NCBI GenBank assembly: GCA_003194525.1
Contig: NBIV01000031.1
Coordinates: 248,001 to 312,000 of the forward strand
Direction: 5' to 3'
Source of the DNA: Gracilariopsis chorda
Taxonomy: Eukaryota; Rhodophyta; Florideophyceae; Gracilariales; Gracilariaceae
Length of the DNA: 64,000 bases
The translations under genes were made by a program, and so were the position numbers. Under the pieces are notes generated by a model. It saw nothing but the letters and a program-made list of their open reading frames with translations, ran no database searches and was not told where the DNA came from. Shown here one piece after another: positions 13,227 to 35,195 of this stretch. Each line of letters opens with the position of its first letter. Positions within the stretch are counted from its first letter, which is position 1.

Positions 13227-14032
13227 TGAAGTGCAACGCCCTCAGGGAGGGATTCTGGGTACTTGAACGCTTTCCCGATATTATCGGTTGTGTAGTGTGT
13301 ATATGAACTACGCCCCACAATGGTGGGTATGGACACGTGGGACACGGTTTTGGGTCAATTGGCGGTTGGCCACAGTAGTGGATGTTGCCACGGAATGTGG
13401 AGTATTTTAGTTAATTTTATTTATTATTTTCACACCCATTTCTGGGAAGCTAGTACTTAGTGCGACGGCGCACTGCCGTCGCACCAGTAAACCTTCCCCA
13501 ACAAGGGACCCCAACCTGGGGAATTGGCTCTGAGCTTTACCGCCTCCGCGTGTTCTCAACTCCTCCTTGGAGGGAAGCACCGTAGTGTACGGAAGTTCAC
13601 CCCCCTTGCACATCTAAAGGAGACCCATCATTGGGAGTACTAATTGTTCCAAGTGTCTTGGTGTTTCGCCCTGTATAGGGTTATTGTTACCGGCATCGCC
13701 GTATTTGTTCGTCGCACTCGCGACCCACTTCGTCCTTCCTCTTTCCCCTTTTTAGGGTAGCACCTCCCGCTATCCGCGGCCCTCGTGTGCGCATCCGCTC
13801 ACACACCCCCACTCACGTGGAAACATACCTCTACTGAGGATCACACCCCGCTCACGCGGATACCGATTCTTCGCCTTCACCTCCCTGCGCGAGTCGCGAC
13901 AGGTGTCCCTGGTCTTACAAACCGGCTTCGCCGTGACACCTCTGGGAGGGCTCTACCCAACTGGGTTCACCTCGTGAGAGGAAGATCCCGGACGTCTTTC
14001 GGTGTTTTTCCCCTTTGGGGCATTGCACCACA
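13227..14032 (+). repeat. A1 5' LTR
   Basis: An 806-bp LTR starting TGAAGTGCAACGCC and ending CATTGCACCACA. It contains many tiny perfect hairpins and one 10-bp hairpin (13460-13484). It carries the markers GGGTCAATT and CACTCACGTGG, shared with the A1 3' LTR and different from A2. Confidence 0.95.
13460..13484. promoter_or_regulatory. 10-bp perfect hairpin in family A LTR
   Basis: GTGCGACGGC (13460-13469), loop GCACT, then GCCGTCGCAC (13475-13484). It is present in all four family A LTR copies. Its position near an A/T-rich stretch (about 13410-13430) suggests a transcription start or leader structure, but function is unproven. Confidence 0.7.
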
Positions 14033-14035
14033 AAG

Positions 14036-14056
14036 TGGTCTCCCGACCTAGAATCG
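14036..14056 (+). promoter_or_regulatory. A1 primer-binding site (tRNA 3' end)
   Basis: TGGTCTCCCGACCTAGAATCG begins 3 bases after the LTR. Its complement reads as a T-arm, acceptor strand and CCA end of a tRNA. The implied C1-G72 pair with A73 is the eukaryotic tRNA-Tyr identity pattern, so tRNA-Tyr is the likely primer (inference). Confidence 0.8.
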
Positions 14057-14137
14057 GTTTTTGTTTTCCCTCTTACGAGGTTTGTTTTTATTTACCGGAA
14101 GTTCCGTGATCGTTTCCCGTCGTAACGGTATTTTCTC

Positions 14138-15564: not shown

Positions 15565-16370
15565 TGAAGTGCAACGCCCTCAGGGAGGGATTCTGGGTAC
15601 TTGAACGCTTTCCCGATATTATCGGTTGTGTAGTGTGTATATGAACTACGCCCCACAATGGTGGGTATGGACACGTGGGACACGGTTTTGGGGCAATTGG
15701 CGGTTGGCCACAGTAGTGGATGTTGCCACGGAATGCGGAGTATTTTAGTTAATTTTATTTATTATTTTCACACCCATTTCTGGGAAGCTAGTACTTAGTG
15801 CGACGGCGCACTGCCGTCGCACCAGTAAACCTTCCCCAACAAGGGACCCCAACCTGGGGAATTGGCTCTGAGCTTTACCGCCTCCGCGTGTTCTCAACTC
15901 CTCCTTGGAGGGAAGCACCGTAGTGTACGGAAGTTCACCCCCCTTGCACATCTAAAGGAGACCCATCATTGGGAGTACTAATTGTTCCAAGTGTCTTGGT
16001 GTTTCGCCCTGTATAGGGTTATTGTTACCGGCATCGCCGTATTTGTTCGTCGCTCTCGCGACCCACTTCGTCCTTCCTCTTTCCCCTTTTTAGGGTAGCA
16101 CCTCCCGCTATCCGCGGCCCTCGTGTGCGCATCCGCTCACACACCCCCACTTACGTGGAAACATACCTCTACTGAGGATCACGCCCCGCTCACGCGGATA
16201 CCGATTCTTCGCCTTCACCTCCGTGCGCGAGTCGCGACAGGTGTCCCTGGTCTTACAAACCGGCTTCGCCGTGACACCTCTGGGAGGGCTCTACCCAACT
16301 GGGTTCACCTCGTGAGAGGAAGATCCCGGACGTCTTTCGGTGTTTTTCCCCTTTGGGGCATTGCACCACA
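15565..16370 (+). repeat. A2 5' LTR
   Basis: 806 bp with the same ends as the A1 LTRs. It is followed by the same primer-binding site (about 16374-16394). Private changes relative to the other copies include GCGGAG at about 15737 and CTCCGTGCG at about 16222. Confidence 0.95.
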
Positions 16371-16373
16371 AAG

Positions 16374-16394
16374 TGGTCTCCCGACCTAGAATCG
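16374..16394 (+). promoter_or_regulatory. A2 primer-binding site
   Basis: Identical to the A1 site: it starts TGGTCTCCCGACC three bases after the LTR, complementary to a CCA-ending tRNA. Confidence 0.8.
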
Positions 16395-16475: not shown

Positions 16476-18650
16476 ATGTCGAGAAATCCCTCCGACGCGG
16501 AGCCAGTGGTTACGCGTAGTCGCTCCCGCGACAACGCGGACTCTTCCGAAGTTCGGTTCGTACCCCGTATCCCTATACGGACAAGTTCCAGCCGTGCTGG
16601 CGCCGCTTCATCGCGGAATGATACCCCCGACCGGGAACCCCGGAACCTCCTTTTGCCCTCGTTATCACCCCCGCAGGGGAATGCAGCATCGACTCCGGCT
16701 GTTGCCGCAGTGCCCCAGGCACCCCGGCCTGCTCCCGCTGTCGCGGCTTCAAGCCCCCGTGGAACGGGCGATAACACCCCCCAGGGGACTTCCCTGGAAT
16801 CCCAGGTCCGCGCTCTGTGGACCGCCCATGACACCCTTGTAGGGGAACTAAAATCCCTCCAAGAGGTGGTCTCGGCAACCCCCGTAAAGGAGGTCGCCGA
16901 GGAGCTCCGTATTTTACGGTCTGACGTCAACTCCGTGTTGGAGAGTTTGGGACAACCCGCCGCCTTCATCGAAGGAGTTGAAGCCCGATTTGATCGGATT
17001 GGTGCCCGCCTGGGGACGCTGGAGCAGTTCGTCCCCATGGACAAACCAACCCCGGGTGATCCGGTCAACGAGGCATCGCACAACGACCAGCTTTCTGTGA
17101 AGAAGAAACGCCGTCACCGACGGAAACACCACCGAAAATATTCGGACTCCGATTCTTCGACATCTTCGGACTCATCCCGAAACCATTCGGTTAGCTCTCA
17201 CTCCTCGGACTCCGACTCGGAGGACGAGAAGCGAGGCTACTCCTCCCGCTCGAAGCGGTCATCGGCCACTGAAGCTGTGGTCCGAACCCGCCAGAAGGGG
17301 AGAAGACACCCCGGTCTCCGGGAATTGAAACCGACAAACCCGGATTATCGGAAGCTTTTATCATACCGGTACTACCGGCTTGAAGATTCGTCACTTGGAC
17401 GTACGCCCCGTGGTACGGGAAAGGTGCGAGAATGCATTAAGCGAATGCAGCTCTCGCTCCGCAACCAGTATTTTACTGGAGAGGACCCAGTCCTAGTACT
17501 GGATTTCCTATCCCGCTTTGTAGCGGAGGCCGATATCCTCGGTATGAATGAGGGACAAGCCTATTTGGCTTTACCGTATTTCTTACGGGGAGTGGCCGAG
17601 GACCAATACACCTCTGTCCGAGGATCTTCTCGCGCCTCCGAGGGAGGAGTTACTTGCTGGCCGGAGGCTGTGCAGTATCTTCTGCGCTCCTACGCCACCA
17701 ACACCGCTATTCAGCAGGCTATCCTCGCTTTGCGAGATACACGCCAGCGTGCTGGAAAGACCGAGACCGATTACTCGGTGCGCCTTAACAAGGCTTTCCA
17801 CAGATGTGGTAACGTATACCCCGCTGGGGAGCGCAGTACCATGTTCATTGATGGTCTTGACCCGGCAATCCGGAGTTTAGTTACCCGTTATCGGGAGGAC
17901 AAGCGAAGGATCACCTACCTCGAGCTGGTCCAACACGCTCGAGCGGAAGGGGATGCACTTCGTGCAAGAACTCCGAACAATCGGTCTAAATCCGCCAAGG
18001 CGTTGTTGCTGGAAAGCGAAGCTTCCTCTCTCCCGCTCACCGCGGATGGGAACCCTGGACAGGGATTTGATACCGTGCATTTAGCGCAGGGGGATGGTGT
18101 GTCGATACCCACCAGTGAGTTGCCTTCAACGACGGAGATGGCCCATGATACGGGAACAGAAGATCCCGTTCTATACGGTGGTAACAGTCGGGTTCAACCC
18201 CAACGACTCCCGTTTTCAAACGGTCAATCCCGTTATCAACGGCCTGGATGGACTGACACCCGCCCTGCGGTTCGCTTCTCCGATACTCGGAATAATAATC
18301 CGCGTGTCGCGGTGCTGGCTCTCATTTGCCACCTGTGCTATGCCCATGGCCATACCTCTCCTCAGTGTATTTGTTCACTGAAGGATATGGCCAAGGTGGT
18401 GGCAAATTATGAGGCCCTCACTCCAGAGGAGAAACGTTCCGTCCCGACGGCTTCCTACCTCCGTGCTAAAACGGACTTTTCTCACGCCCTACCACAGACC
18501 CCGCGTGCGCGGCAAGCTTCATACACCCCGATTCGGGAGATCACGCAACCATCCGTTGCAACCCCCGCTTATGCGGATAGAAACCCCCGTCAACGGGATG
18601 AAGCACTCGTTGTCGAGGAAACCAACCCACCGCCGAAGGCGGAAAACTAA
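16476..18650 (+). CDS. gag: A2 Gag polyprotein (724 aa), intact
   Basis: Structural capsid/nucleocapsid protein of the chromovirus. The ATG at 16476 gives 724 residues. The N-terminal 200 residues are Pro/Ser/Ala-rich. Residues 208-252 form a strongly basic then Ser/Asp/Glu-rich low-complexity stretch (KKKRRHRRKHHRK, then SDSDSSTSS). Residues 320-490 match a retrotransposon Gag capsid (FTGEDPVLVLDFLSRF; GLDPAIRSLVTRY). A CX2CX4HX4C zinc knuckle lies at residues 618-631 (CHLCYAHGHTSPQC). It ends in TAA at 18648-18650; pol follows in the -1 frame. It is the only full-length, uninterrupted gag in the window. Confidence 0.93.
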   Translation: MSRNPSDAEPVVTRSRSRDNADSSEVRFVPRIPIRTSSSRAGAASSRNDTPDREPRNLLLPSLSPPQGNAASTPAVAAVPQAPRPAPAVAASSPRGTGDNTPQGTSLESQVRALWTAHDTLVGELKSLQEVVSATPVKEVAEELRILRSDVNSVLESLGQPAAFIEGVEARFDRIGARLGTLEQFVPMDKPTPGDPVNEASHNDQLSVKKKRRHRRKHHRKYSDSDSSTSSDSSRNHSVSSHSSDSDSEDEKRGYSSRSKRSSATEAVVRTRQKGRRHPGLRELKPTNPDYRKLLSYRYYRLEDSSLGRTPRGTGKVRECIKRMQLSLRNQYFTGEDPVLVLDFLSRFVAEADILGMNEGQAYLALPYFLRGVAEDQYTSVRGSSRASEGGVTCWPEAVQYLLRSYATNTAIQQAILALRDTRQRAGKTETDYSVRLNKAFHRCGNVYPAGERSTMFIDGLDPAIRSLVTRYREDKRRITYLELVQHARAEGDALRARTPNNRSKSAKALLLESEASSLPLTADGNPGQGFDTVHLAQGDGVSIPTSELPSTTEMAHDTGTEDPVLYGGNSRVQPQRLPFSNGQSRYQRPGWTDTRPAVRFSDTRNNNPRVAVLALICHLCYAHGHTSPQCICSLKDMAKVVANYEALTPEEKRSVPTASYLRAKTDFSHALPQTPRARQASYTPIREITQPSVATPAYADRNPRQRDEALVVEETNPPPKAEN

Positions 18651-21600
18651 CTGAGGGAGTCTCCCCTTTGGGAGAGGCGTCCTCAAAAACGAGGCTGTTG
18701 GCGCCCGAGGCGTCCTCGCCTCGCTCCCCGGTGAAAGTCCTCTCGAGGAAAGACACCGCTGACGCGGACTCTGCGCACCTCGGTGTGTTGCGTCGCCCGT
18801 GGATACGGAGTAAAAATCCCCGGATTCCCGGTAGAGTCTTGGTCTTGGCCAAGCGCAATTATAAGGTCTATGCCGACCTTGGCCTTGACCCCCAGTTTAT
18901 GGTGAGGTTTCTCACCGTCCTGGATACAGGTGCAGGCCCCAACTTTGTCGTGGAATCATTGTTACCCCCGCTTGTGCGGTCGCGTATCCGCTCTGACGCG
19001 GTCCCCGACATTTCGGATGCGAACAACAACCCGTTACAAACGGTGGGCACAGTGGACCTCGTCGTGAGACTTGGTACATCTGTGGTGAAGTTGGACTTCA
19101 TCGTTTGCCGTTCACTGGCAGCACCAGTCATACTGGGATGTGATTACTGCGACAGATTTGTCGACGCAATCAGGCCCCGCCTCAGGCGTGTAGAACTTGA
19201 CGACGGATCGTCGGTTCCGATTGTTCGCCGCCCGCTAAAGCGGTCCTCTCGGAAACAAGTTCCGCTCCCTGCTGCGCAGGAACCACCGCCCGCGTCCCGC
19301 GAGTCCACCAAGCTCCGCGTCGCTGCCTCGGTTTCTATACCGGCTGAGTCCCGAGTCTGGGTACAGGTAAATTCCCGTCAACACGGTCTTCGGGTTATAC
19401 AACCCCTCGCCTCGTTGTACGAGAAATCCCAGCTGGCGCTGGCTAATGGAATTGTCTCCATTTCCCCGGATGTTCCTTTCCGGATATTGGTTGCCAACCT
19501 TGGCAAACACCCCCAGTATCTGGTCAAACACCAAGTAATTGGGAGTGTAACCCCCCATCCTATGGGAATGCTGCCAACGAAGATGACAGCCGCCGATGTA
19601 CTCGGAGTTACCACCTCTTCTGAGGAGTTCACCCCGCCGTCCGAAGACGTCAAGTCTAAGGAGGGGGAGGAAACCGCTACTTCAGCGTCGAACATACCGA
19701 GTAACTCGGAATTGCGAACCACACCTGTTCCACAGGACAATGCTCCATCGAGCAATGACCGGATTGATCCGGAAAAAGCACTTGAAGCGCTGGACTTCAG
19801 CCACGTGCCAGAGTCGCACCGCGACAAACTCCGTACTATGTTACGGGAATTCACCACAATGTGGGATGGCTCGCTTGGCGAGATTGATGCAACGGAACAC
19901 CGGATCGATTTAATCCCCGGTGCGCGACCGGTTGCACAACCCCCTTACAGGGCAGGTCCGAAAGCTCGGGAAGAGGAACAGTCCCAGGTGGACAAGATGC
20001 TCCGCGCAGGTGTGATTGAGCCCGCTCAATCGCCCTGGGCATCCCCAGTTGTACTGGCTTTAAAGGCTGACGGAACCTGGAGGTTCTGTGTCGACTACCG
20101 CCGGCTCAATGCCGTGACTGTTAGGGACACGTACCCCATCCCTCGTATGGACGAGTGCATTGACTCCCTTGGAGACGCCACCGTGTTCACGGCCCTTGAT
20201 GCCAATTGGGGATATTGGCAAGTACCTGTCAGACAGGAGGATCGCGACAAAACCGCATTCACCTGCCATGCAGGAACGTACCGCTTCAAGCGGATGCCAT
20301 TTGGGTTAACCAACGCCCCCGCCACCTTTCAGCGTGCAGTAGATATCCTACTCAACCGCTTTAAGTGGCGGAGTTGTCTGGTCTACCTTGATGATATTAT
20401 CATCTTCTCCAACTCGTTGGACGACCATCTCACTCACGTCCGAGACGTGCTGACCGTACTCCGCGATGCGGGAATTACCCTCAAGTTGAGGAAATGCGAG
20501 TTTTTCACAGATACTGTGAAGTATCTGGGTCACATTATCCGTCCTGGACGGTTAGCGATCGAGAAAGCTCGAGTCAAATCCCTCGTTGAGGCGAAAGAAC
20601 CCCGTACTCAAACGGAACTGCGCTCCTTTCTGGGGCTAGTCAACGTCTATCGACGGTTTATCCCGAACTTTTCGGATACTGCAGCGCCCCTGAACGCGTT
20701 GTTGCGAAAGGGGAAACCCCCCAAAACTGGGAACATTTACGCCCGAGCAATCGGAAGCCTTTAACTCCTTGAAGGAGGCTGTCACATCAGCACCAATCCT
20801 ACATCTCCCAAAACTTGGGTTGCCATACTCCGTAGATACGGACTCGAGCGACTACCAAGTCGGGTGTGCTCTTTTTCAAACCACCCCCGAGGGGGAACGA
20901 CACCCAATTGGTTATTGGTCGCGCTCGCTCAATGTCCATGAGCGGAACTACTCCGTATCGGAGAAAGAGTGCCTCGCCGTCGTATGGGCGATGACCACTC
21001 TGCGCCCCTACCTTATGGGAGTCCATTTCACCGTGTACACGGATCATTCCTCACTGAGGTGGTTAATGAATATCTCCGACCCGTCGGGACGCCTCATGCG
21101 CTGGAGACTCCGCCTCGCGGAATATGACTTCCAAGTCATTTATAAAAAGGGCGCGCAGAACACCCAAGCCGACGCTCTGTCGCGTTTACCCACAAGTGGG
21201 GAGGCACTCCCAACGGAGGATGATGAAGTCCCATGTTTCATGGCAATGGACCCGGATGATCCGGAATGTGCCGTCGAGGCTGAGCCAGAAAACTGGGACG
21301 AAGATGCTGACTTCGACTACCTACTCGCATCGCGAGATGATTCTGAGAAACCCATACCGGAAAATTATGTACCGGTTGAGACCGAGGAAATGATCCGAGA
21401 ACAATTCGGGGACCCCTTCTGTACAAGGATACGTGCACGCCTCAACGGCGGAGTGAACCTCCCCTTCGGGGTGAACGACATTGGTTACCTCGTGAGGACC
21501 GTCGAGGCTACCCCACAAGTTGTGGTACCGCACACGCTACAGAAGCGGATATTGCACCTTTCGCATTACCCGAAACTCGGGGGACACTCCGGTGGGAGGA

Positions 21601-24260
21601 AGCTTTATCTAACCCTTCGCAGGGATTTCTACTGGCCCGCCATGGCGGTTGATTGCTACGCTACGGTGCGGTTCTGCACGCAATGCGCGAAGAACCGGGT
21701 CAAACTCCGGAAGCACTCCAAACGGATGAAGCTATTCCCCGCCAGGGCACCGCTCGAGTTTGTCGCAATTGACATTCTCGGACCATTGCTCTCTACCAGG
21801 AGAGGCAACAAGTTCCTACTCGTTATTACGGACAGGTTCTCGAAATTAGTTCGGACAGTCCCTCTAAAGAGGATTACCGCCTACACGGTCGCTCACGCCT
21901 TTGTGCGGCATTGGGTGTTTGCCTACGGACCTCCTTTGGAGCTACTTTCCGACAACGGGAAACAGTTCGCATCGCGATTTTTCCAGGACGTCTGTCGGAT
22001 ACTGGACGTGAAGAATCTCTTCACGACCACGTATCATCCCCAGTCTAATGGGCAGGTCGAGCGTTTCAACCGGACAATGCTCGCAGCTCTCCGTGCTTAC
22101 ACGGCTGACCACCCCAAGACTTGGGATATCTACACGGATGCCGTGACCTTTGCGTACAATACGCAGGTACACCGGACTACCGGAATATCCCCTTTCGAGT
22201 TGGTCCTTTCACGGACACCCCCGCCAATGGCGTTGGAATCCCAACCTACGTTGGACGCGTTCCCTTCTGTGAAGGATTACCGCCAGAAGTGGAAAGCATG
22301 GCTGACCAAGCTGGTACCCGCAGCGCGGAAGGCGATGGACCACGCCCAAGCCGTCTACAAACGGAATTTCGATGCTCGCTTGCGAGGAGGCAAACCGGAA
22401 CAGATCAACTCCGGGGACTTCGTATTCGTCCGCAAGGAGTACTACAACCCTGAAAGGGAGAAGCACCATAAGCTCTCGCCTGTGGCGGATGGTCCTTTCA
22501 AGGTTATCTCCGTCACGACGGACACAGTGGTTGTGGAAATGGGTGACGCGCATGAGCGGTTATCTCGCGATCGCATCGTGCTAGCTCCGCCACCCTCGAC
22601 TGAGGCTGCACCAGCTACGCTGGACCCTACGCTGGAATATGGCTCTGCATCCGATACATCGGTGGTGAGACGGCCTACCGTGCTACCACACCCCTCCCGG
22701 GGACTCTCAGACCTACCGACCCTGTCGGACTCACCGGCTCAGCCGGGTAATTCGGGCCTCTCTGTGCCCGCCCCTATGGCGCGAATCTACACCCGCCAGG
22801 CGGGGCATGTTATCCCTTATCCCGCCGCTCCGTCTCAGGAGGGGGAGGAGAACACTCGTTTTCGAGGAATGAGATCGCCGTCGCAACGGGAAACACGCCG
22901 TACCATACGGACAACTGACCGCGGAGCACGGAGTATCTCACGCGACACTAATCCCCCGTCCTCGGGCAGCGCTGTGCAACAGGAACCAGACGCGCAGGTC
23001 CCGCAAAGGCGGCAAATACACCGTGTTACACGGGAAGCTGAAACGCAGCTACCGCACACCCCTGTCAGGGAAGGATCCCCGATACGGGAGTACGGCGACA
23101 ATCGCCCTCAATCCCCTGAGCAGGGAGATGCCTCAAAGCCGCCATTGACGGAAGTCCCCGCGGAAGCGGTTCAATCAGGTCGCTCAGACCCGCGCCCCGC
23201 GGAGAAGAGGCGCCCAGATACACCAGCGCCGCTGGGAAATACCCACACCCCTATCGGGGAAAAGGGTAGCCAAGCCGCATCCGAAGCTTCAGGCCCTGGC
23301 GCGCAGAGCTCGGAAACGCTCCCCGTCGCAGACGGAATCGAAGCCCCCGTTCCGGGGAATAATTTGCGCCAACTACCGCAACGCTGCGGCGAAGAACCGA
23401 GGAACTCGGGAAAAACGCGCGCCATCGCACGCTCGAAACCGGTCGTACCGGACGCTGCTCCTCCTCATGGAGACGGTGCACCGCACTTAGCGGCAATTCC
23501 CCTGAAAAGGGTGTCATCGGCACCTGCCCGGAACCCCCCAGAGGGGAATTTTGACCAAAATACCGGTGTACCGGAGTTAGCCCCAGGCAACCCGTCAGTA
23601 GCCGGGGACACCACGGCATCGCCGGAACGTATGGTGCAGAGCGCTCGTGCGCCTGGCAGGGAGGCGGTTTGCCACCCAATCACCGTGTCGCACGGGACCC
23701 CCCAGGGGATTGTGGAAATGCCGATCCCGTAGGAGCGGTCATCTTCCCGCAAACTCGCGGTTCGTGCGCTCAACCGCGAAGGCGGAACCCAAGTCCCCCG
23801 CCGACTGGCGGTTCGCCCGGCCTACCGTGAAGACGGAAACAACGACACCCCTCTGGGGAACGACTTGCCGGTGAAAACCGTGGCACCACACACCCTCTTG
23901 AGGGATATTTTCCCGCATGAGCAGCGGCCACTAGGACAGCGCACGGCAACGTCAGAGTTATCGCCGAACACCCTGCTAAGGGACATTATACCGCACCGCG
24001 GGCAACCCTCGCCATGGATTACAACCACCACCCGGCACGGCCGGCAGGTCTACGAACGAGAGTTCGTAGTAGACCGACTTGTCGGACACACCTGGGACCA
24101 GGATGGTATTCTACAATACCGCGTCCGCTGGTACGGGTACGACCCCAGTGGGGATACGTGGGAGCCAATGGAACACCTCCCACGGTCGCAGGTCCTGCGA
24201 TACCACCGTCAAACGGGAACTGCAGCTCCAGCCACGCTGGTAAATGCCCAAGTTGGGTAA
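18650..24260 (+). pseudogene. pol: A2 pol (protease, RT, RNase H, integrase, chromodomain), broken
   Basis: Order of domains: aspartic protease (VLDTGAGPN, about 18920-18950), reverse transcriptase (FCVDYRRLNA; YLDD at about 20380), RNase H (VDTDSSDYQVGCALF; TDHSSLRWL), integrase zinc domain (HLSHY, GGHSG, CTQCAKNR) and DDE core (AIDILGP; LSDNGKQF; GQVERFNR), a Pro/Ser-rich linker, and a chromodomain (about 24051-24219). A single extra A in a run at about 20715 shifts the frame. TAG at 23730-23732, where A1 has CAG, cuts off the chromodomain. The frame re-opens after each lesion, so these are recent mutations. Pol is in the -1 frame relative to gag. Confidence 0.93.
18660..18675 (+). promoter_or_regulatory. 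Hairpin just after gag stop, possible frameshift stimulator
   Basis: TCTCCC-CTTT-GGGAGA, a perfect 6-bp stem starting 9 bases after the A2 gag stop codon, in the gap before pol. A1 has the same hairpin at 26783-26798. The pol frame is -1 relative to gag and has no ATG before the protease, so recoding is expected. I see no canonical slippery heptamer. Confidence 0.4.
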
Positions 24261-25213: not shown

Positions 25214-26020
25214 TGAAGTGCAACGCCCTCAGGGAGGGATTCTGGGTACTTGAACGCTTTCCCGATATTATCGGTTGTGTAGTGTGTATATGAACTACGC
25301 CCCACAATGGTGGGTATGGACACGTGGGACACGGTTTTGGGGCAATTGGCGGTTGGCCACAGTAGTGGATGTTGCCACGGAATGTGGAGTATTTTAGTTA
25401 ATTTTATTTATTATTTTCACACCCATTTCTGGGAAGCTAGTACTTAGTGCGACGGCGCACTGCCGTCGCACCAGTAAACCTTCCCCAACAAGGGACCCCA
25501 ACCTGGGGAATTGGCTCTGAGCTTTACCGCCTCCGCGTGTTCTCAACTCCTCCTTGGAGGGAAGCACCGTAGTGAACGGAAGTTCACCCCCCTTGCACAT
25601 CTAAAGGAGACCCATCATTGGGAGTACTAATTGTTCCAATCATATTGGTGTTTCGCCCTGTATAGGGAGTCCTGTCCACCGGCATTGCCGTATCTACTCG
25701 TCGCTCTCGCGACCCACTCGTCCTTCCTCTTTCCCCTTTTTAGGGTAGCACCTCCCGCTATCCGCGGCCCTCGTGTGCGCATCCGCTCACACACCCCCAC
25801 TTACGTGGAAACATACCTCTACTGAGGATCACGCCCCGCTCACGCGGATACCGATTCTTCGCCTTCACCTCCCTGCGCGAGTCGCGACAGGTGTCCCTGG
25901 TCTTACAAACCGGCTTCGCCGTGACACCTCTGGGAGGGCTCTACCCAACTGGGTTCACCTCGTGAGAGGAAGATCCCGGACGTCTTTCGGTGTTTTTCCG
26001 CTTTGGGGCATTGCACCACA
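25214..26020 (+). repeat. A2 3' LTR, with a divergent internal patch
   Basis: 807 bp, paired with 15565-16370 by shared markers and by GACAA duplications. Bases 25638-25713 are clearly different from all other copies, while both sides are nearly identical. A compensating change in a hairpin stem lies in this patch (25636-25648). Confidence 0.92.
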
Positions 26021-26025
26021 GACAA

Positions 26026-26773: not shown

Positions 26774-29700
26774 CTGAGGGAGTCTCCCCTTTGGGAGAGG
26801 CGTCCTCACGAACGAGGCTGTTGGCGCCCGAGGCGTCCTCGCCTCGCTCCCCGGTGAAAGTTCTCTCGAGGAAAGACACCGCTGACGCGGACTCTGCGCA
26901 CCTCGGTGTGTTGCGTCGCCCGTGGATACGGAGTAAAAATCCCCGGATTCCCGGTAGAGTCTTGGTCTTGGCCAAGCGCAATTATAAGGTCTATGCCGAC
27001 CTTGGCCTTGACCCCCAGTTTATGGTGAGGTTTCTCACCGTCCTGGATACAGGTGCAGGCCCCAACTTCGTTGTGGAATCATTGTTACCCCCGCTTGTGC
27101 GGTCTCGTATCCGCTCTGACGCGGTCCCCGACATTTCGGATGCGAATAACAACCCGTTACAAACGGTGGGCACAGTGGACCTCGTCGTGAGACTTGGTAC
27201 CTCCGTGGTGAAGTTGGACTTCATCGTTTGCCGTTCATTGGCAGCACCAGTCATACTGGGATGTGATTACTGCGACAGATTTGTCGACGCAATCAGGCCC
27301 CGCCTCAGGCGTGTAGAACTTGACGACGGATCGTCGGTTCCGATTGTTCGCCGCCCGCTAAAGCGGTCCTCTCGGAAACAAGTTCCGCTCCCTGCTGCGC
27401 AGGAACCACCGCCCGCGTCCCGCGAGTCCACCAAGCTCCGCGTCGCTGCCTCGGTTTCTATACCGGCTGAGTCCCAAGTCTGGGTGCAGGTAAATTCCCG
27501 TCAACACGGTCTTCGGGTTATACAACCCCTCGCCTCGTTGTACGAGAAATCCCAGCTGGCGCTGGCTAATGGAATTGTTTCCATTTCCCCGGATGTCCCT
27601 TTCCGGATATTGGTTGCCAACCTTGGCAAACACCCCCAGTATCTGGTCAAACATCAAGTAATTGGGAGTGTAACCCCCCATCCTATGGGAATGCTGCCAA
27701 CAAAGATGACAGCCGCCGATGTACTCGGAGTTACCACCTCTTCTGAGGAGTTCGCCCCGCCGTCCGAAGACGTCAAGTCTAAGGAGGGGGAGGAAACCGC
27801 TACTTCAGCGCCGAACATACCGAGTAACTCGGAATTGCGAACCACACCTGTTCCACAGGACAATGCTCCATCGAGCAATGACCGGATTGATCCGGAAAAA
27901 GCACTTGAAGCGCTGGACTTCAGCCACGTGCCAGAGTCGCACCGCGACAAACTCCGTACTATGTTACGGGAATTCACCACAATGTGGGATGGCTCGCTTG
28001 GCGAGATTAATGCAACGGAACACCGGATCGATTTAATCCCCGGTGCGCGACCGGTTGCACAACCCCCTTACAGGGCAGGTCCGAAAGCTCGGGAAGAGGA
28101 GCAGTCCCAGGTGGACAAGATGCTCCGCGCAGGTGTGATTGAGCCCGCTCAATCACCCTGGGCATCCCCAGTTGTACTGGCTTTAAAGGCCGACGGAACC
28201 TGGAGGTTCTGTGTCGACTACCGCCGGCTCAATGCCGTGAATGTTAGGGACACGTACCCCATCCCTCGTATGGACGAGTGCATTGACTCCCTTGGAGACG
28301 CCACCGTGTTCACGGCCCTTGATGCCAATTGGGGATATTGGCAAGTACCTGTCAGACAGGAGGATCGCGACAAAACCGCATTCACCTGCCATGCAGGAAC
28401 GTACCGCTTCAAGCGGATGCCATTTGGGTTAACCAACGCCCCCGCCACCTTTCAGCGTGCAGTAGATATTCTACTCAACCGCTTTAAGTGGCGGAGTTGT
28501 CTGGTCTACCTTGATGATATCATCATCTTCTCCAACTCGTTGGACGACCATCTCACTCACGTCCGAGAGGTGCTCACCGTACTCCGCGATGCGGGAATTA
28601 CCCTCAAGTTGAGGAAATGCGAGTTTTTCACAGATACTGTGAAGTATCTGGGTCACATTATCCGTCCTGGACGGTTAGCGATCGAGAAAGCTCGAGTCAA
28701 ATCCCTCGTTGAGGCGAAAGAACCCCGTACTCAAACGGAACTGCGCTCCTTTCTGGGACTGGTCAACGTCTATCGACGGTTTATCCCGAACTTTTCGGAT
28801 ACTGCAGCGCCCCTGAACGCGTTGTTGCGAAAGGGGAACCCCCCAAAACTGGGAACATTTACGCCCGAGCAATCGGAAGCTTTTAACTCCTTAAAGGAGG
28901 CTGTCACATCAGCACCAATCCTACATCTCCCAAAACTTGGGTTGCCATACTCCGTAGATACGGACTCGAGCGACTACCAAGTCGGGTGTGCTCTTTTTCC
29001 AACCACCCCGAGGGGGAACGGCATCCAATTGGTTATTGGTCACGTTCGCTCAATGTTCATGAGCGGAACTACTCCGTGTCGGAGAAAGAGTGCCTCGCCG
29101 TCGTATGGGCGATGACCACTCTGCGCCCCTACCTTATGGGAATTCACTTCACCGTGTACACGGATCATTCCTCATTGAGGTGGTTGATGAATATCTCCGA
29201 CCCGTCGGGACGCCTCATGCGCTGGAGACTCCGCCTCGCGGAATATGACTTTCAAGTCATTTATAAAAAGGGTGCGCAGAACACCCAGGCCGACGCTTTA
29301 TCGCGGTTACCCACAAGTGGGGAAGCACTCCCAACGGAGGATGATGAAGTCCCATGCTTCATGGCTATAGACCCGGGTGATCCGGAACATGCCGTCGAGG
29401 CTAGGCCATAAACCTGGGACGAGGATGCTGATTTTGACGAACTACTCGCATCGCGAGATAAATCTGAGAACCCGTTACCGGGAAACTTTGTACCGGTATC
29501 ACCGGAAGAAATGATCCGAAAACAATTCGGCGACCCATTCTGTACCAGAATTCGTGCCCGTATCAACGGTGGTGAAGATCTCCCTTTCGGGGTAAACGAC
29601 AAAGGCTACCTCGTAAGAAAGGTCGAAGCCCGCCCACAGATTGTGCTACCACATTCCCTGCAATCGCGGGTGTTACATCTATCACACTACGCCCCCATTG

Positions 29701-32348
29701 GAGGTCACCCAGGTGGGAGGAAACTCTACCTAACCCTGCGAAGGGATTTCTATTGGCCCGCAATGGCGGTGGATTGCTACGCAACTGTGCGGTTTTGTAG
29801 CGAATGCGCGAAGAATCGCGTCAAACTCCGCAAAAATGCGAAGAAGATGAAACTATTCCCCGCAAGGGCGCCGCTCGAGTTTATTGCGATCGATATTCTC
29901 GGACCATTACTCACCACGAAACGTGGAAACAAGTTTCTACTTGTCATTACCGACCGCTTTTCTAAGCTGGTACGGACTGTCCCTCTTCGGAGGATAACCG
30001 CTCTCACGGTGGCCCAGGCTCTGGTGATGCACTGGATTTTTGTCTACGGTCCCCCTGTAGAGGTGCTCTCTGACAACGGGAAGCAGTTCGTGAGCAAGTT
30101 CTTTCAGGATGTTTGTCGCATCCTGGATGTCAAGAACTTGTTCACGACTACCTACCACCAGTGTAATGGGCAAGTTGAACGGTTTAACCGGACGTTACTC
30201 GCGGCGTTACGTTCCTACGTCGCTGACCACCCAACGAATTGGGATCTCTACGCTGATGCGGTAACCTACGCGTACAATACGCAGGTACACCGGACTACCG
30301 GAGTTTCGCCATTCGAGTTAGTTCTATCTAGAACACCCCCGCCTGTGGCGCTGGAACCCCAAGCTACCTTGGACAATTTCCCATCTGTGGGTATCTACCG
30401 GCAGCAATGGAAGCAATGGCTTTCCAAGCTGGTCCCCGCGGCGCGGAAGTCTATGGCACGGGCCCAAGCCGCTTACAAGCGGGATTTTGACGCTCGCGTG
30501 CGAGGAAAACCGTCCCCGATTCGGGCAAATAACTACGTCTTCATCAGGAAGGAATACTACAACCCGGAACGGGAGAAGCGTCACAAACTCTCGCCTGTGG
30601 CGGATGGACCCTTCAAGGTGATCTCTGTTAACACCGACACTGTCGTGGTAGAGATGGGGGACACGCACGAACGGATTTCCCGTGATCGTGTTGTCCTTGC
30701 CCCTCCTCCCTCGTCAGAGGTAATCCTGGATCCAGGCAACCCCGTTTCTACGGACTCCGCTACACCGGAACAATCCGGGAGTACTAGACCTACGGTACTA
30801 CCACACCCCAGCCGGGGACTCTCAGACCTACCGACTCTGTCGGACTCACCGGCTCAGCCGGGTAATTCGGGCCCCTCAGCGCCCGCCCCTACCACATCTG
30901 CCCCACTGGCGCGCATTTATACCCGCCAGGCGGGGAATGTTATCCCTTATCCCGCCGCTCCGTCTAAGGAGGGGGAGGAGAACACTCGTTTTCGAGGAAC
31001 GATATCACCGTCGCAACGGGAAACACACCGTAACATACGGAACACTGACCGTGGAGCACGGAGTATGTCACGCGACACTAATCCCCCGTTCCCGGGCAGT
31101 GCTGTGCAACAGGAACCACACGCGCAGGCCCCGCAAAAGCGGCAAATACACCGTTTGTCACGGGAAAACGAGAAGCCTCACTCCAAGACCGCAGCAGCGG
31201 AAAGGCAATCGCCCGATGCCTCGAAGCCGCCGTTGGCGGAAGTCCCCGCGGAAGCGGTTCAATCAGGTCGATCAGACCCGCGCCCTGCGGAGAAGAGGCG
31301 CTCAGATACACCAGCGCCGCTGGGAAATACCCACACCCCTATCGGGGAAAAAGGCGGCCAAGCTGCAGTCGAAGCTTTGAGCCCTGGCTTGCAAGCACCG
31401 GAAACGCCTCCCGTCGTTGACGGAATCAAAGCCCCCGCTACGGGGAATAATTTGCGCCAACCCCCGCATCGCTGCGGCGAAGAACCGAGAAACTCGGGAA
31501 TAACGCGCGCCATCGCACGCTCGAAACCGGTCGTACCGGACGCTGCTCCTCCTCACGGAGATGGTGCACTGCGCTCAGCGGCAATTCCCCTGAAAAGGGT
31601 GTCATCGGCACCTGCCCAGAACCCCCCAAAGGGGAATTTTGACCAAAATACCGGTGTACCGGAGTTAGCCCCAGGCAACCCGTCAGTAGCCGGGGACACC
31701 ACGGCATCGCCGGAACGTATGGTGCAGAGCGCTCGTGCGCCTGGCAGGGAGGCGGTTTGCCACCCAATCACCGTGTCGCACGGGACCCCCCAGGGGATTG
31801 TGGAAATGACGATCCCGCAGGAGCGGTCATCTTCCCGCAAACTCGCGGTTCGTGAGCTCAACCGCGAAGGCGGAGCCCAAGTCCCCCGCCGACTGGCGGT
31901 TCGCCTGGCCTACCGTGAAGACGGGAACAACGACACCCCAATGGGGAATGACTTGCCGGGGAAAACCGTGACACCACACACCCTCTTGAGGGATATTTTC
32001 CCGCATGAGCAGCGGCCACTTGGACAGCGCACGGCAACGTCGGAGTTATCGCGGAACACCCTGCTAAGGGACATTATACCGCACAGCGGGCAGCCCTCGC
32101 AAGGGAGTACAACCACCACCCGGCACGGCCGGCAAGTCTACGAACGAGAGTTCGTAGTAGACCGACTTGTCGGACACACCTGGAACCAGAATGGTATTCT
32201 ACAATACCGCGTCCGCTGGTACGGGTACGACCCCAGTGGGGATACGTGGGAGCCAATGGAACACCTCCCACGGTCGCAGGTTCTGCGATACCACCGTCAG
32301 ACGGGAACTGCAGCCCCAGCCACGCTGGTCAATGCCCAAGTTGGGTAA
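26773..32348 (+). pseudogene. pol: A1 pol with chromodomain, broken by one deletion and one stop
   Basis: Same domain order as A2. The first frame covers protease and RT (26791 to about 29008, YLDD at about 28510). A one-base loss in a C run at about 29009 moves RNase H into the next frame. TAA at 29409-29411 stands where A2 has GAA. From 29412 the frame is open to 32348 and includes the zinc domain, integrase DDE (SDNGKQF; GQVERFNR, preceded by a 3-nt in-frame deletion compared with A2) and an intact chromodomain (about 32139-32310). The RNase H-integrase stretch (about 29412-30720) is far more diverged from A2 than the flanks. Confidence 0.93.
32139..32310 (+). other. Chromodomain at the C-terminus of A1 pol
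   Basis: About 57 residues from YEREFVVDRLVGHTW to RYHRQTG, including the core VRWYGY and the D-TWEP turn. In other chromoviruses such C-terminal chromodomains steer integration toward marked chromatin. Here it is in frame with the A1 integrase. In A2 it is separated from integrase by a stop. Confidence 0.9.
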
Positions 32349-32539
32349 CGTTGCCGCGCGAGCGGAGAGCGAAAGGAAAGGATAACAAGGCAAAGTCCGT
32401 CGAAGACGGGGAACTCAACCGAGAAGCACCGTTCTAAACGAGAAAGTTTATTCAGGGGAGCAGCTAGCTCCCCACAATACTACACTACACTAACTGGCAT
32501 AGCCAGGGAAAGAGGAACCAGGGAACTGGACCAGAGGTT

Positions 32540-34327
32540 TCACTCACCCCCATCGTCCGGGGCGTAACCACCAGCGAGGCGGTAGGCCAACGCGTCCGCC
32601 ATGGTGGTGACATCCCCCGATACCTCGGCAGCGCTAAGACCGGCACCCCGGAGGAAACGTGCGATGATTTCGTTTTCATTCGCCGTCACCCCGCTGGGGA
32701 TTGAAGGTCCGGCACTTGCCGCCGAAGGGTCAGCAGCCGGCTCGGCCGGAGATGCCCCCTCTGGGAAAGCTTCCGCGCTAGCGCCGGTTTCCTCTACGTC
32801 CATCTCCCCGGGTTCTTCCGGTTCGTTATCGACCATTGGGTCATCCCCGCCGTATGCGCGGTAGTAGTCGTCGGAATCGACGTACCCCACCGGGTGGTCT
32901 TCCGGCACATGCCGGGGCGTATCGCGAAGCTCGCGCGCCTCCTCGGAGGAAATTTCCCGGAACTCCCAGGGGTCGAAGTAGATAAAATCCCCCGCAAGGG
33001 CGGTGTTTCTACCGAGTCCCGGACCACCGGTGTTACCGCTACCGCCATCCAGACGACCGCTTTGCTCCAGCGGGACCTCACTCCAGCTAACGCTGTCGAT
33101 GTACCCAAGTAATTGGAGGACCTCTTCATTGTTGGCCTGGCCCCCAAGGGGGATGCGAAGATCCAGGTTTCGGATCGCTGCCCGCACACGCGGTTGAAGG
33201 AACCAGAGACGATACTGGTCGTACGCCTCGTTGAGGATATAAGCCGCACTGCGGGCCGCCCACTCCGTAACCACCACGGACCACAACCCCGACCGGGGAT
33301 CCTGCATGAGCAGCGAACCGAGGTACGTAAGTACCGGCGGGAGTTCTATGTAGCACCCCCGGCAGGCTTCATGGAAGCGCCACCACTCGGGGAGTGCTAC
33401 ATACCGACCTAGTCGGTGAGGCGGCGCAATCCGCTCTATCTCCACGTTCTGATACGGGATAAAATACCCGAATCGGGATCGCCAACGCCGCTCGTAGCGG
33501 ATGAAGTTTTGGAGAAAGTTGGACCGGTATTGCCGGGGAAGGTACCTGAACTCCGCCCGAATAATCGGTCGCTCCCAGAAAAGGGCCTCTTGCCGCGCTG
33601 CGGGGAAATTCCTCCAAGCGAGGGTCTCGAGGCGGAACAGGTTCTCGCCGTACCCAATCTCCCCGCGAGTGCGGAAGTAGCTAACGTCGAAGCCAAACTC
33701 CAGTGGGACCGGTACATCGAATGGAGCCCGGCTCTGCCGTTGATACGCCATGCGCGTCAGCGCGGTCTGTGCCGCAGCGACGGTCTCGCCCGAGTTTCTT
33801 CGGAGGTGGTGACGCGGAATCGCAATCCGGTGACGCCAATCCCACGATGTGGTGACTGCTCTGGGCAGATCCCCCGGAAGGGTGTCTGAACCATCCGCAT
33901 AAGCGGTGACCAATCCCTCATTGAGGACGGCGACCGGGTGAAACCACGGGGCAAGGCGCAGGCGCGACGCGTGATTCCGATTCATCGGGTTGAGCCCCAC
34001 CAGGGTGTTGTAAGTTGGCCAGTTGGACACCGGAGTGGTTCCGGAGGACACCACCGAAGGTGGTAGTGCGAAGGGATGGTCGGCTGCCGCAGCCATATTC
34101 CCCGGTTGTACCGGATTTCGATCGCCCTGAGGCAGGGGAACTGACCAGAAACCGGTGGTGTATCGCCCGAGAAGTCTCGGCGGTTGGCTGTGGTTGTTGA
34201 TATCGTTGTCGTCGTTCATTTTTCCCTTTTGGAGGGTGGCTGTTGTTGTCGTTTGTGTGCTTGGTGACTCTGGTGCAGAGGGATTTACCGGAGAACCGGA
34301 GTCAAAGCACGCGCTTTTATCACCCAT
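32540..34327 (-). CDS. Antisense accessory ORF of A1 (595 aa), unknown function
   Basis: A long ATG-initiated frame on the strand opposite to gag-pol, convergent with pol (192 bases apart) and starting 58 bases inside the 3' LTR boundary, so any promoter must lie in the LTR reading backwards. I do not recognise a domain. The middle (residues about 170-440) is rich in Trp, Tyr, Phe and Arg and looks globular. The C-terminal 140 residues are acidic, Pro/Ala/Ser-rich and probably disordered (DSDDYYRAYGGDDPMVDN region), followed by a small helical end. No signal peptide or membrane segment is evident, which argues against an envelope protein. Element B2 has a degenerate antisense frame at the same position with weak collinear similarity. 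Persistence of 595 open codons in a family with fresh lesions elsewhere suggests it was recently functional. Confidence 0.75.
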   Translation of the reverse strand: MGDKSACFDSGSPVNPSAPESPSTQTTTTATLQKGKMNDDNDINNHSQPPRLLGRYTTGFWSVPLPQGDRNPVQPGNMAAAADHPFALPPSVVSSGTTPVSNWPTYNTLVGLNPMNRNHASRLRLAPWFHPVAVLNEGLVTAYADGSDTLPGDLPRAVTTSWDWRHRIAIPRHHLRRNSGETVAAAQTALTRMAYQRQSRAPFDVPVPLEFGFDVSYFRTRGEIGYGENLFRLETLAWRNFPAARQEALFWERPIIRAEFRYLPRQYRSNFLQNFIRYERRWRSRFGYFIPYQNVEIERIAPPHRLGRYVALPEWWRFHEACRGCYIELPPVLTYLGSLLMQDPRSGLWSVVVTEWAARSAAYILNEAYDQYRLWFLQPRVRAAIRNLDLRIPLGGQANNEEVLQLLGYIDSVSWSEVPLEQSGRLDGGSGNTGGPGLGRNTALAGDFIYFDPWEFREISSEEARELRDTPRHVPEDHPVGYVDSDDYYRAYGGDDPMVDNEPEEPGEMDVEETGASAEAFPEGASPAEPAADPSAASAGPSIPSGVTANENEIIARFLRGAGLSAAEVSGDVTTMADALAYRLAGGYAPDDGGE

Positions 34328-34372
34328 TTTCGTCTGGGAATCCTCCGCGTCCGCGGTCGTTTTCCCGTCTTA

Positions 34373-34384
34373 AGGGGGGGGATA
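34373..34384 (+). promoter_or_regulatory. A1 polypurine tract
   Basis: AAGGGGGGGGATA-like run ending at the 3' LTR start (34385). Expected primer site for plus-strand DNA synthesis. Confidence 0.75.
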
Positions 34385-35190
34385 TGAAGTGCAACGCCCT
34401 CAGGGAGGGATTCTGGGTACTTGAACGCTTTCCCGATATTATCGGTTGTGTAGTGTGTATATGAACTACGCCCCACAATGGTGGGTATGGACACGTGGGA
34501 CACGGTTTTGGGTCAATTGGCGGTTGGCCACAGTAGTGGATGTTGCCACGGAATGTGGAGTATTTTAGTTAATTTTATTTATTATTTTCACACCCATTTC
34601 TGGGAAGCTAGTACTTAGTGCGACGGCGCACTGCCGTCGCACCAGTAAACCTTCCCCAACAAGGGACCCCAACCTGGGGAATTGGCTCTGAGCTTTACCG
34701 CCTCCGCGTGTTCTCAACTCCTCCTTGGAGGGAAGCACCGTAGTGTACGGAAGTTCACCCCCCTTGCACATCTAAAGGAGACCCATCATTGGGAGTACTA
34801 ATTGTTCCAAGTGTCTTGGTGTTTCGCCCTGTATAGGGTTATTGTTACCGGCATCGCCGTATTTGTTCGTCGCTCTCGCGACCCACTTCGTCCTTCCTCT
34901 TTCCCCTTTTTAGGGTAGCACCTCCCGCTATCCGCGGCCCTCGTGTGCGCATCCGCTCACACACCCCCACTCACGTGGAAACATACCTCTACTGAGGATC
35001 ACACCCCGCTCACGCGGATACCGATTCTTCGCCTTCACCTCCCTGCGCGAGTCGCGACAGGTGTCCCTGGTCTTACAAACCGGCTTCGCCGTGACACCTC
35101 TGGGAGGGCTCTACCCAACTGGGTTCACCTCGTGAGAGGAAGATCCCGGACGTCTTTCGGTGTTTTTCCGCTTTGGGGCATTGCACCACA
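34385..35190 (+). repeat. A1 3' LTR
   Basis: 806 bp, matching 13227-14032 at the family-specific marker sites and differing at only about two positions found by eye (13711 region A/T, and C/G at 14012 versus 35170). It is followed by the second GATTG target duplication (35191-35195). Confidence 0.95.
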
Positions 35191-35195
35191 GATTG

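What the first reader, a model, noticed from the sequence alone, without database searches (positions are those of the whole stretch)
13227..35190. Chromovirus family A is carpeted with perfect micro-hairpins
LTRs, gag, pol, linker and the antisense ORF of A1 and A2 contain very frequent perfect inverted repeats of 4-6 bp with 3-4 nt loops, mostly starting CC and ending GG. In 23223-23451 alone I count seven: CCAGC-GCC-GCTGG (23223), CCCC-TATC-GGGG (23248), CCGTC-GCA-GACGG (23323), CCCCG-TTC-CGGGG (23345), CCGCA-ACGC-TGCGG (23376), CCGAG-GAA-CTCGG (23397), CCGGT-CGT-ACCGG (23439). A rough hand estimate under uniform base use gives well under one such CC..GG stem in that length. In gag there is CCGTAT-CCCT-ATACGG (16565), and in the LTR three in a row at 16147-16197. 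The longest seen is an 8-bp stem at 24050-24069. The B, C and host sequences in this window do not look like this. Possible causes: selected RNA structure (packaging, recoding, protection), or reverse transcriptase repeatedly correcting near-palindromes by copying one arm from the other.
Basis: seen in the sequence. Interest (0 to 1): 0.92.

Follow-up and report, generated by a model that had tools for sequence, protein, structure and literature searches.

The report
Hairpin-carpeted retrotransposon in a red alga
A very abundant jumping gene in a red seaweed is built, from end to end, of hundreds of tiny perfect hairpins of nearly one size and spacing, and comparison of copies shows that evolution keeps these hairpins while their loops change freely, so that they probably matter for how the element copies itself.

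Summary
Confirmed, and more specific than reported. The 22-kb unit 13227-35190 (Ty3/gypsy copies sharing LTRs, flanked by GATTG duplications) carries about 25 non-overlapping perfect hairpins per kb: 228 in A2 against 44±6.5 in shuffles, and 3.3-4.9 times codon-preserving shuffles in the six ORFs tested. Host sequence and family B are near shuffle level. The hairpins have a fixed outer size of 11-14 nt (5 bp + 3-nt loop, or 4 bp + 4-nt loop), a 5-bp stem cap with 3-nt loops, linkers rarely under 5 nt, and a spacing near 21 nt. Lineages at 72-81% identity keep them: paired sites change least, and double changes often restore Watson-Crick pairs (63 of 103). Old LTR copies of one sub-family show no stem protection, so upkeep seems tied to replication. 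Arm-copying by reverse transcriptase predicts several times more compensated pairs than seen. A sister family (71% identity) and a relative from another record (49% protein identity) share it; 19 other gypsy contigs show little or none (z at most 3.7). G·U pairs are hardly tolerated, so folding of + strand RNA alone is doubtful; the strand is unresolved. Host: very probably Gracilariopsis chorda. Likely a selected array of uniform single-strand hairpins; function inferred only.

The parts
13227..35190 (+). whole hairpin-carpeted insertion: LTR - partial gag - LTR - A1 - LTR - A2 - LTR, one unit with target-site duplication GATTG at 13222-13226 and 35191-35195, LTRs beginning TG and ending CA
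   Evidence: hairpin density
13227..14032 (+). LTR 1 (806 bp)
15565..16370 (+). LTR 2 (5' LTR of A1)
25214..26020 (+). LTR 3 (between A1 and A2); 20 C-led micro-hairpins listed, spread over its whole length
34385..35190 (+). LTR 4 (3' LTR of A2)
16476..18650 (+). A1 gag ORF (724 aa), CCHC zinc knuckle CHLCYAHGHTSPQC at 18327; 57 hairpins vs 14.5 in codon shuffles
18668..20764 (+). A1 reverse transcriptase ORF (698 aa, RVT_1 E 6.5e-37); 56 hairpins vs 11.4
20769..23732 (+). A1 RNase H - integrase ORF (987 aa); 78 hairpins vs 20.1; includes the cluster 23223-23451
26791..29115 (+). A2 RT ORF; 62 hairpins vs 14.7
29511..32348 (+). A2 integrase - chromodomain ORF (945 aa, Chromo E 1.3e-9 at residues 881-922); 80 hairpins vs 20.0
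32540..34327 (-). antisense ORF of A2 (595 aa, no Pfam family at its cut-off); homologues at 39-58% identity incl. Gracilariopsis chorda and Gracilaria domingensis; 49 hairpins vs 14.7 in codon shuffles of this strand
23223..23451 (.). dense example: seven perfect hairpins of 12-14 nt
24050..24069 (.). exceptionally long member (8-bp stem, 4-nt loop)

Best explanation
Family A is a Ty3/gypsy element with a chromodomain (found in A2) whose entire sequence has been shaped by selection into an array of uniform, size-capped micro-hairpins (about 12-13 nt each, roughly one detected per 40 nt, neighbouring ones about 21 nt apart). SHOWN: the array, its fixed geometry, its spacing, its conservation with compensatory changes between lineages, its decay in old copies, and its presence in a sister family and in a relative from another record. 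INFERRED: the hairpins fold in a single-stranded form of the element during its replication cycle, most likely inside the virus-like particle (genomic RNA and/or first-strand cDNA), where each one is a repeated compact unit that keeps the long strand locally folded and packs or shields it, probably together with the zinc-knuckle Gag. Because + strand G.U pairs are hardly accepted, I lean slightly to the minus-strand cDNA, or to a need to fold in both strands, over + strand RNA alone.
For: Geometry: excess at outer span 11-14 nt; with 3-nt loops stems stop at 5 bp (8 of 60 go on, against 13 of 37 elsewhere in the window). Centres are not complementary beyond chance (32 of 179 span-13 hairpins have a sixth pair), so intrastrand hairpins rather than duplex dimers. 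Spacing in A2: gaps 0-4 nt 9 vs 33.8±5.0, gaps 5-12 nt 76 vs 47.8±5.6. Covariation: four non-redundant comparisons, 63 of 103 doubly changed pairs still Watson-Crick; 33 hairpins changed but fully paired against 60 with one bad pair; 17-LTR alignment 86% paired vs 26-40% in slid controls. Stems change less than linkers in all four comparisons (e.g. 0.163 vs 0.222, 0.123 vs 0.201). Old sub-family LTRs: stem 0.0436, linker 0.0442, whereas among eight A-type LTRs stem 0.0513, linker 0.0756, so upkeep seems tied to replication. Same 13-nt geometry in L035 (gag 15 vs 2.9±1.9, pol 7 vs 1.0±0.9 in codon shuffles). Single strands would fold so: mean hairpin probability 0.58 with DNA and 0.42 with RNA parameters, vs 0.36 and 0.21 for chance hairpins of host sequence. 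Folding-energy excess 10.6-12.1% vs 2.0-3.3% elsewhere.
Against: No expression, probing or particle data exist here; packing or shielding is inference. Family L010 has a similar zinc knuckle (CHRCYYHGHIVPKC) but no clear hairpin excess (3-7 per kb), so a zinc knuckle alone does not explain the array. Strand evidence conflicts: the A-rich 3' flank lies on + but vanishes in the antisense-ORF region; wobble counts in A1 and A2 favour neither strand (GU +7 and +20, AC +17 and +7 over control), and only A' shows a marked excess of minus-strand wobbles (AC 85 vs 52.5). A span-13 loop-closing pair shows G.U above control (16 vs 2.1, pooled copies), which fits + RNA. Older lineages show no stem skew between wobble types (ratios 0.98 and 1.03). 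Turnover between A and A' is large (71 of 157 hairpins with two or more bad pairs). Selection on some 230 small hairpins per element needs a large effective element population.
Confidence: 0.5

Rival explanations
1. The hairpins are a + strand RNA structure of the genomic/messenger RNA, of the kind called genome-scale ordered RNA structure, kept because it hides the RNA from host RNA surveillance (siRNA target sites of about 21 nt, annealing to the element's own antisense transcript) or helps packaging.
For: Folding-energy excess of 10.6-12.1% lies in the range reported for structured RNA viruses (HCV 7.5-10.7%, pegivirus 12.5%, SARS-CoV-2 around 15%). Spacing near 21 nt. The element encodes an antisense protein gene, so sense and antisense RNAs could meet. 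A-rich 3' flanks on + in gag-pol. G.U above control at the loop-closing pair of span 13.
Against: G.U pairs almost absent although A-U pairs are freely used (GU +20 and +7 beside +306 and +313 perfect hairpins in A2 and A1); stem length capped and loops short, which RNA energetics alone does not demand (own knowledge of the energy rules); positions conserved, unlike GORS, reported as poorly conserved.
Confidence: 0.3
2. Reverse transcriptase repeatedly perfects near-palindromes by copying one arm from the other (templated mutation), so that the hairpins are a by-product and not selected.
For: The excess is nearly all in perfect hairpins; one-mismatch forms are close to background in A1 and A2. 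Upkeep appears limited to replicating lineages.
Against: Two-change broken hairpins: 79 with both changes in one arm, 123 split between arms (bands share sequences). Neutral arm copying should change about as many pairs jointly as linkers change per site (20-29%); seen 3-6% in four comparisons. Stems are conserved in sequence, not merely in pairing. Does not by itself give a 5-bp cap, even spacing, or restriction to one gypsy clade.
Confidence: 0.1
3. The hairpins are binding sites of one dedicated protein (Gag or the conserved antisense-ORF protein) that reads a short helix of fixed height, as a self-label for packaging.
For: Fixed size, stem cap, minimum linker and free loops fit a ruler-like reader of the helix. 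The antisense protein is conserved at 39-58% in gracilarialean and unnamed sources.
Against: No protein known to bind; the antisense protein has no recognised domain; whether it is present in L035's element or absent from family B was not tested.
Confidence: 0.2
4. By-product of base composition, codon use or DNA-level palindrome maintenance in the genome.
For: A is richer in G+C (0.53-0.61 in its ten inner 2-kb bins) than most of its surroundings.
Against: Dinucleotide and codon-preserving shuffles fall 3.3-5.2 fold short; noncoding LTRs share it; old copies lose it and show no stem protection.
Confidence: 0.02

Closest known systems
[quoted passage not shown]
   Same: Structure spread over coding and noncoding parts, hundreds of consecutive stem-loops, folding-energy excess of similar size, paired sites less diverse.
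   Different: Here one stereotyped unit of 11-14 nt with a stem cap and a regular spacing, nearly Watson-Crick only, positions conserved between lineages; in an integrating LTR element; GORS is reported as poorly conserved in position and pairing.
Satellite tobacco mosaic virus RNA packed as a series of stem-loops on coat-protein dimers (PMC3551766: passages seen)
   Same: Genome seen as a string of short local helices (30 helices of 9 bp in the crystal), proposed to be bound one by one by the coat protein.
   Different: Helices of 9 bp, not 4-5 bp; the passages describe no genome-wide array of perfect uniform hairpins in the sequence, and doubt that the free RNA folds so; here no particle data.
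Ty3 genomic RNA of yeast (PMC11381356: passages seen)
   Same: Same superfamily of retrotransposon; structured genomic RNA with a well-folded core.
   Different: Well-folded core covers about 20% of the RNA and no uniform hairpin array is mentioned in the passages seen.
Retand gypsy elements with antisense ORFs between pol and 3' LTR (PMC11963269: abstract seen)
   Same: Antisense protein-coding region between pol and the 3' LTR.
   Different: Retand are non-chromoviruses of plants; A2 carries a chromodomain and its antisense protein matches no Pfam family at the cut-off.

Membership tests
Ty3/gypsy LTR retrotransposon, chromovirus | LTRs starting TG and ending CA with a target-site duplication | tested here: met
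Ty3/gypsy LTR retrotransposon, chromovirus | RT - RNase H - integrase order | tested here: met
   (A1 ORFs)
Ty3/gypsy LTR retrotransposon, chromovirus | chromodomain at the integrase C-terminus | tested here: met
   A2 E 1.3e-9; not found at E<=0.001 in the A1 ORF 20769-23732
GORS (genome-scale ordered RNA structure) | folding energy lower than shuffled controls over the whole genome | tested here: met
   10.6% (A2) and 12.1% (A1), vs 2.0-3.3% for three other stretches; sampled windows, mean values
GORS (genome-scale ordered RNA structure) | structure acts in + strand RNA | tested here: inconclusive
   no general G.U tolerance on +, minus-strand wobbles in marked excess in A' only
GORS (genome-scale ordered RNA structure) | heterogeneous stem-loops, poorly conserved in position (as reported) | tested here: not met
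   one size class, positions conserved
Capsid-bound stem-loop string (STMV-like) | helices bound by capsid protein in the particle | not testable with these tools
   no particle or binding data
Templated arm-copying (quasi-palindrome correction) | multi-base changes confined to one arm | tested here: not met
   79 same-arm vs 123 split

The most novel reading that the evidence does not exclude
A clade of red-algal gypsy elements has evolved a genome-wide structural code: every stretch of the element must fold, in its single-stranded replication intermediate (minus-strand cDNA or both strands), into Watson-Crick-only micro-hairpins of fixed height and regular spacing, superimposed on all its genes and LTRs, a repeated nucleoprotein unit like a nucleosome array for a single strand, or a self-label that tells element from host nucleic acid.
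Probability: 0.35. Interest if true: 0.93.

Novelty: new variant of a known kind. Interest (0 to 1): 0.84.

Why it matters
If single-strand hairpins are selected over the whole length of an LTR retrotransposon, then retroelements, like some RNA viruses, can carry a second, structural message over all their genes, here with an unusually uniform unit. It also offers a way to recognise active lineages of such elements, and a natural case of strong conflict between protein coding and nucleic-acid folding.

Tried and rejected
Rejected: chance or composition; codon use; reading-frame linkage (start phases uneven but no single phase); duplex dimers (centres not self-complementary beyond chance); constant loop motif (among span-12 and span-13 hairpins of A2 no loop sequence is seen more than 5 times); host DNA-level upkeep; known Rfam families (0 matches at gathering score in 13227-35190); neutral arm copying.

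Led nowhere: viral-contig scan for relatives (45 stretches matched a pattern, 0 confirmed); Pfam for gag and the antisense protein; a first one-mismatch strand test in which background swamped the signal; structure prediction of the antisense protein. Strand tests pull in different directions and are left unresolved. One search pools related copies, so its counts are not independent (there A.C exceeds control more than G.U does); one search treats pieces one by one and is the one I rely on. Counts also reuse related copies; one search used only window pieces as queries. HSPs with low hairpin density in the query were dropped; 'split' includes pairs changed on both sides that do not pair. Hairpins spanning an indel were set aside (33 of 401 in the four summed comparisons; the comparisons with L033 and L023 were left out of that sum as redundant). 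The L023 LTR comparison, left out, had no fully compensated hairpin among its 32.
Full report
WHAT WAS CHECKED. Counting perfect stems against loop length gave the first new fact: in 13227-35190 the excess does not sit at one loop size but at one OUTER size. Loop 3 with 5 bp (147 against 14.9 in shuffles), loop 4 with 4 bp (192 vs 53.5), loop 2 with 5 bp (57 vs 14.0) and loop 1 with 6 bp (32 vs 4.7) all amount to 12-13 nt; the two flanking stretches show no such pattern. By outer span the excess runs from 11 to 14 nt and peaks at 12 and 13. At spans 12 and 13 each of the two outermost positions is C on the left and G on the right in 75-87% (13 nt with 5 pairs, 12 nt with 4), less so at spans 11 and 14; loops are mixed, and the base after the hairpin is often A (45-54%). 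With 3-nt loops, stems stop at 5 bp: in A2 8 of 60 stems extend to 6 bp, elsewhere in the window 13 of 37.

DENSITY AND CONTROLS. A2 (25214-34384) holds 228 non-overlapping hairpins against 43.7±6.5 in 100 dinucleotide shuffles, A1 237 against 46.6±6.3; B holds 51 against 40.3±6.7 and host sequence 49 against 43.0±5.8. Codon-preserving shuffles (200 each) of five sense ORFs and of the antisense ORF average 11-20 where 49-80 are seen (3.3-4.9 fold), and no shuffle reaches the count. Density is fairly even from U3 to the 3' LTR (2-9 C-led hairpins per 250 nt). In the whole stretch hairpins cover 31% of the bases. RNA folding energy in 350-nt windows is 10.6% (A2) and 12.1% (A1) below shuffles, against 2.0, 2.8 and 3.3% for host, B and the stretch 35401-46000.

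SPACING. In the whole stretch the start-to-start distance peaks at 20-22 nt with a second rise near 40-42; CC-to-GG correlation peaks at 10-11, about 30-33 and about 54 nt. As A1, A2 and the four LTRs are copies of each other, I repeated this on A2 alone: gaps of 0-4 nt 9 times against 33.8±5.0 for random placement, gaps of 5-12 nt 76 times against 47.8±5.6. The 1.5 kb of A1 behind pol agrees (2 vs 5.4, 15 vs 7.8); in A' (L031) short gaps are rare (1 vs 6.0) but the 5-12 class is not clearly raised (11 vs 9.5).

WHERE IT OCCURS. In 24 stretches of 10 kb of the same genome, chosen by contig number and not strictly at random, 34 of 240 one-kb bins reach 15 hairpins, and all lie in six stretches that hold DNA similar to A. 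A sister family, A' (L031-L034; 71% DNA identity, 73-75% protein identity in RT), is also rich: L031 has 83 against 23.6 in shuffles. Two other gypsy relatives, L010 (51% protein identity) and L022 (42%), and family B of the window (58% over part of RT) are at or near background. A scan of bacterial and archaeal genome assemblies found 20 contigs encoding relatives, all in metagenome bins. One, L035 (49% identity over residues 18-538 of the RT ORF, filed under a Robiginitomaculum bin), shows 53 hairpins against 20.4 (z 10.2); the other 19 (33-46% best-segment identity) have z of 3.7 or less, L048 being the highest (24 vs 11.7). In L035 the class most in excess is again span 13 with 5 bp (gag 15 vs 2.9±1.9, pol 7 vs 1.0±0.9 in codon shuffles), but without preference for CC. 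So geometry, not the CC..GG ends, is what is shared.

THE ORGANISM. A protein named as Gracilariopsis chorda BWQ96_03215 lies on a contig of 445,473 bases, exactly the length of contig C30 of this genome. The unit 13227-35190 reads as a single insertion (GATTG on both sides) of a tandem form that shares LTRs.

EVOLUTION. In four non-redundant alignments between lineages (72-81% identity; A2 coding vs L031, A2 3' region vs L029, A2 LTR vs L026, A1 vs A2 integrase) 1,591 stem pairs were scored: 1,152 unchanged, 336 changed on one side, 103 on both, of which 63 are still Watson-Crick. By hairpin: 156 unchanged, 33 changed but fully paired, 60 with one bad pair (34 other mismatches, 14 A.C, 12 G.U), 119 with two or more, 33 with an indel and not scored. 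By my own rough estimate from the per-site stem rates (12-23%), independent changes would give about one fully compensated hairpin per twenty singly broken ones, not one per two. Stems change least in all four (linker/stem/loop: coding 0.292/0.226/0.292, 3' region 0.269/0.144/0.243, LTR 0.222/0.163/0.343, integrase 0.201/0.123/0.264), so loops change about as fast as linkers, and faster in two. In an alignment of 17 LTR sequences, 86% of cells in 32 hairpin column sets (some overlapping) are Watson-Crick against 26-40% when partners are slid by 1-3 columns; one sees pairs of variants such as CCCATCATTGGG and CCGAGTATTCGG at one place. Results that go the other way: the comparison with the old LTR of L023, left out of the sum, had no fully compensated hairpin among 32, and hairpin turnover between A and A' is large (71 of 157 hairpins, indel-bearing ones counted, have two or more bad pairs).

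WHEN IS IT MAINTAINED? Five LTRs of one sub-family (L026-L030; most similar partner 96-97%), whose differences I take to be mostly younger than insertion, show a stem rate of 0.0436 and a linker rate of 0.0442 (71 and 240 differences): no protection. Among eight A-type LTRs the stem rate is 0.0513 against 0.0756. Old copies have fewer hairpins (L023 11.7/kb, L006:4498 10.7/kb, against 27-30/kb in the window's LTRs). Hence the hairpins seem to be upheld while the element replicates, not in resident DNA.

SELECTION OR COPYING MECHANISM? If reverse transcriptase turned near-palindromes into perfect ones by copying an arm, changes should cluster in one arm, and pairs should change jointly about as often as neutral sites change. 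Hairpins with two changes and a broken pair have them in one arm 79 times and split 123 times; 119 further ones are single compensated pairs (bands share sequences). Jointly changed Watson-Crick pairs are 27 of 638, 11 of 265, 10 of 169 and 15 of 519 where linkers differ by 29, 27, 22 and 20%. I therefore favour selection; arm correction as a minor helper is not excluded.

WHICH STRAND? This is open. Hairpins with a single G.U on + are hardly in excess over same-sequence control spans, though A-U pairs are freely used: A2 112 vs 92.0, A1 92 vs 85.4, A' 41 vs 40.0, L035 36 vs 36.2; single A.C on + (the wobble of the minus strand): 127 vs 120.2, 134 vs 117.3, 85 vs 52.5, 53 vs 43.9; perfect ones 371 vs 64.6, 377 vs 64.4, 114 vs 27.6, 80 vs 27.5. 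In young copies (90-95% and 95-100% identity) stem changes that make + strand G.U are fewer than those that make A.C (ratios 0.65 and 0.37, linkers 0.99 and 1.18), but loops lean the same way (0.86 and 0.57), older bands show no stem skew (0.98 and 1.03), and related copies are counted together. Hairpins with exactly one bad pair, G.U against A.C: 24:37, 22:20, 30:46, 6:12 in the four bands from old to young. For + RNA speak the A-rich 3' flank, which however vanishes over the antisense ORF, and a G.U excess at the loop-closing pair of span 13 (16 vs 2.1, pooled copies). My reading is that folding of the + RNA alone would have left many more G.U pairs, so that single-stranded cDNA, or both strands, or a reader that demands Watson-Crick helices, is somewhat more likely.

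MECHANISM. Shown: uniform hairpins, apparently upheld during replication, with free loops. Inferred: they act as repeated folding units of a single-stranded intermediate in the particle. The gag regions of A and A' carry a CCHC zinc knuckle, and L035's gag ORF contains a matching C-x2-C-x4-H-x4-C stretch (read by eye), but so does hairpin-poor L010, so the knuckle is not the cause by itself. The element also carries a conserved antisense gene of unknown fold that could be a reader; this is a guess.

COMPARISON WITH WHAT IS KNOWN. The nearest kinds are GORS of RNA viruses (PMC7642675, abstracts and passages), the stem-loop string of satellite tobacco mosaic virus (PMC3551766, passages) and structured Ty3 RNA (PMC11381356, passages). 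In what I saw of them none has one stereotyped, size-capped, Watson-Crick-only, regularly spaced unit over the whole element. Ten full-text searches showed, in the 5-20 papers listed by each (titles and starts of abstracts; nine of the ten matched more papers than were listed), no report of such hairpin arrays in a retrotransposon or a red alga; the library is open-access only, so this is weak evidence of absence.

VERDICT. Real, strong, unexplained, shared by a lineage of elements. I file it as a new variant of pervasive genome structure, with a fair chance that it is a new kind.

Noticed in passing
window 32540-34327 (-): A conserved antisense protein gene (595 aa) of unknown fold lies between pol and the 3' LTR of A2; five homologues at 39-58% identity, including Gracilariopsis chorda BWQ96_03215 and Gracilaria domingensis FGB62_50g12. 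Structure prediction did not finish.
   Followed up: partly
window 13222-35195: The family A stretch reads as one insertion of a multi-LTR tandem (four LTRs, three internal parts) with a single target-site duplication GATTG, rather than two independent insertions.
   Followed up: yes
L023, L026-L030: LTR sub-families about 74-78% identical to A are probably very numerous in the genome (first-look candidates 1,437 and 1,784, of which 40 each were scored), and two diverged LTR matches lie about 25 bases apart at C1068, C757 and C729.
   Followed up: no
L035 1-4100: A contig filed under a bacterial bin (Robiginitomaculum) is an LTR-retrotransposon piece with gag and pol, probably a contaminant from a eukaryote.
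   Followed up: partly
A-family stems and loops, young copies: On the + strand G>A plus T>C outnumber C>T plus A>G in hairpin stems and loops but not in linkers in the 90-100% identity bands: a strand-asymmetric signature that is not explained.
   Followed up: partly
L002:3000-4500 and L011:4500-5000: Locally raised hairpin counts (8, 5, 5 and 8 per 500 nt) without DNA similarity to A; perhaps chance, perhaps a distant family.
   Followed up: no
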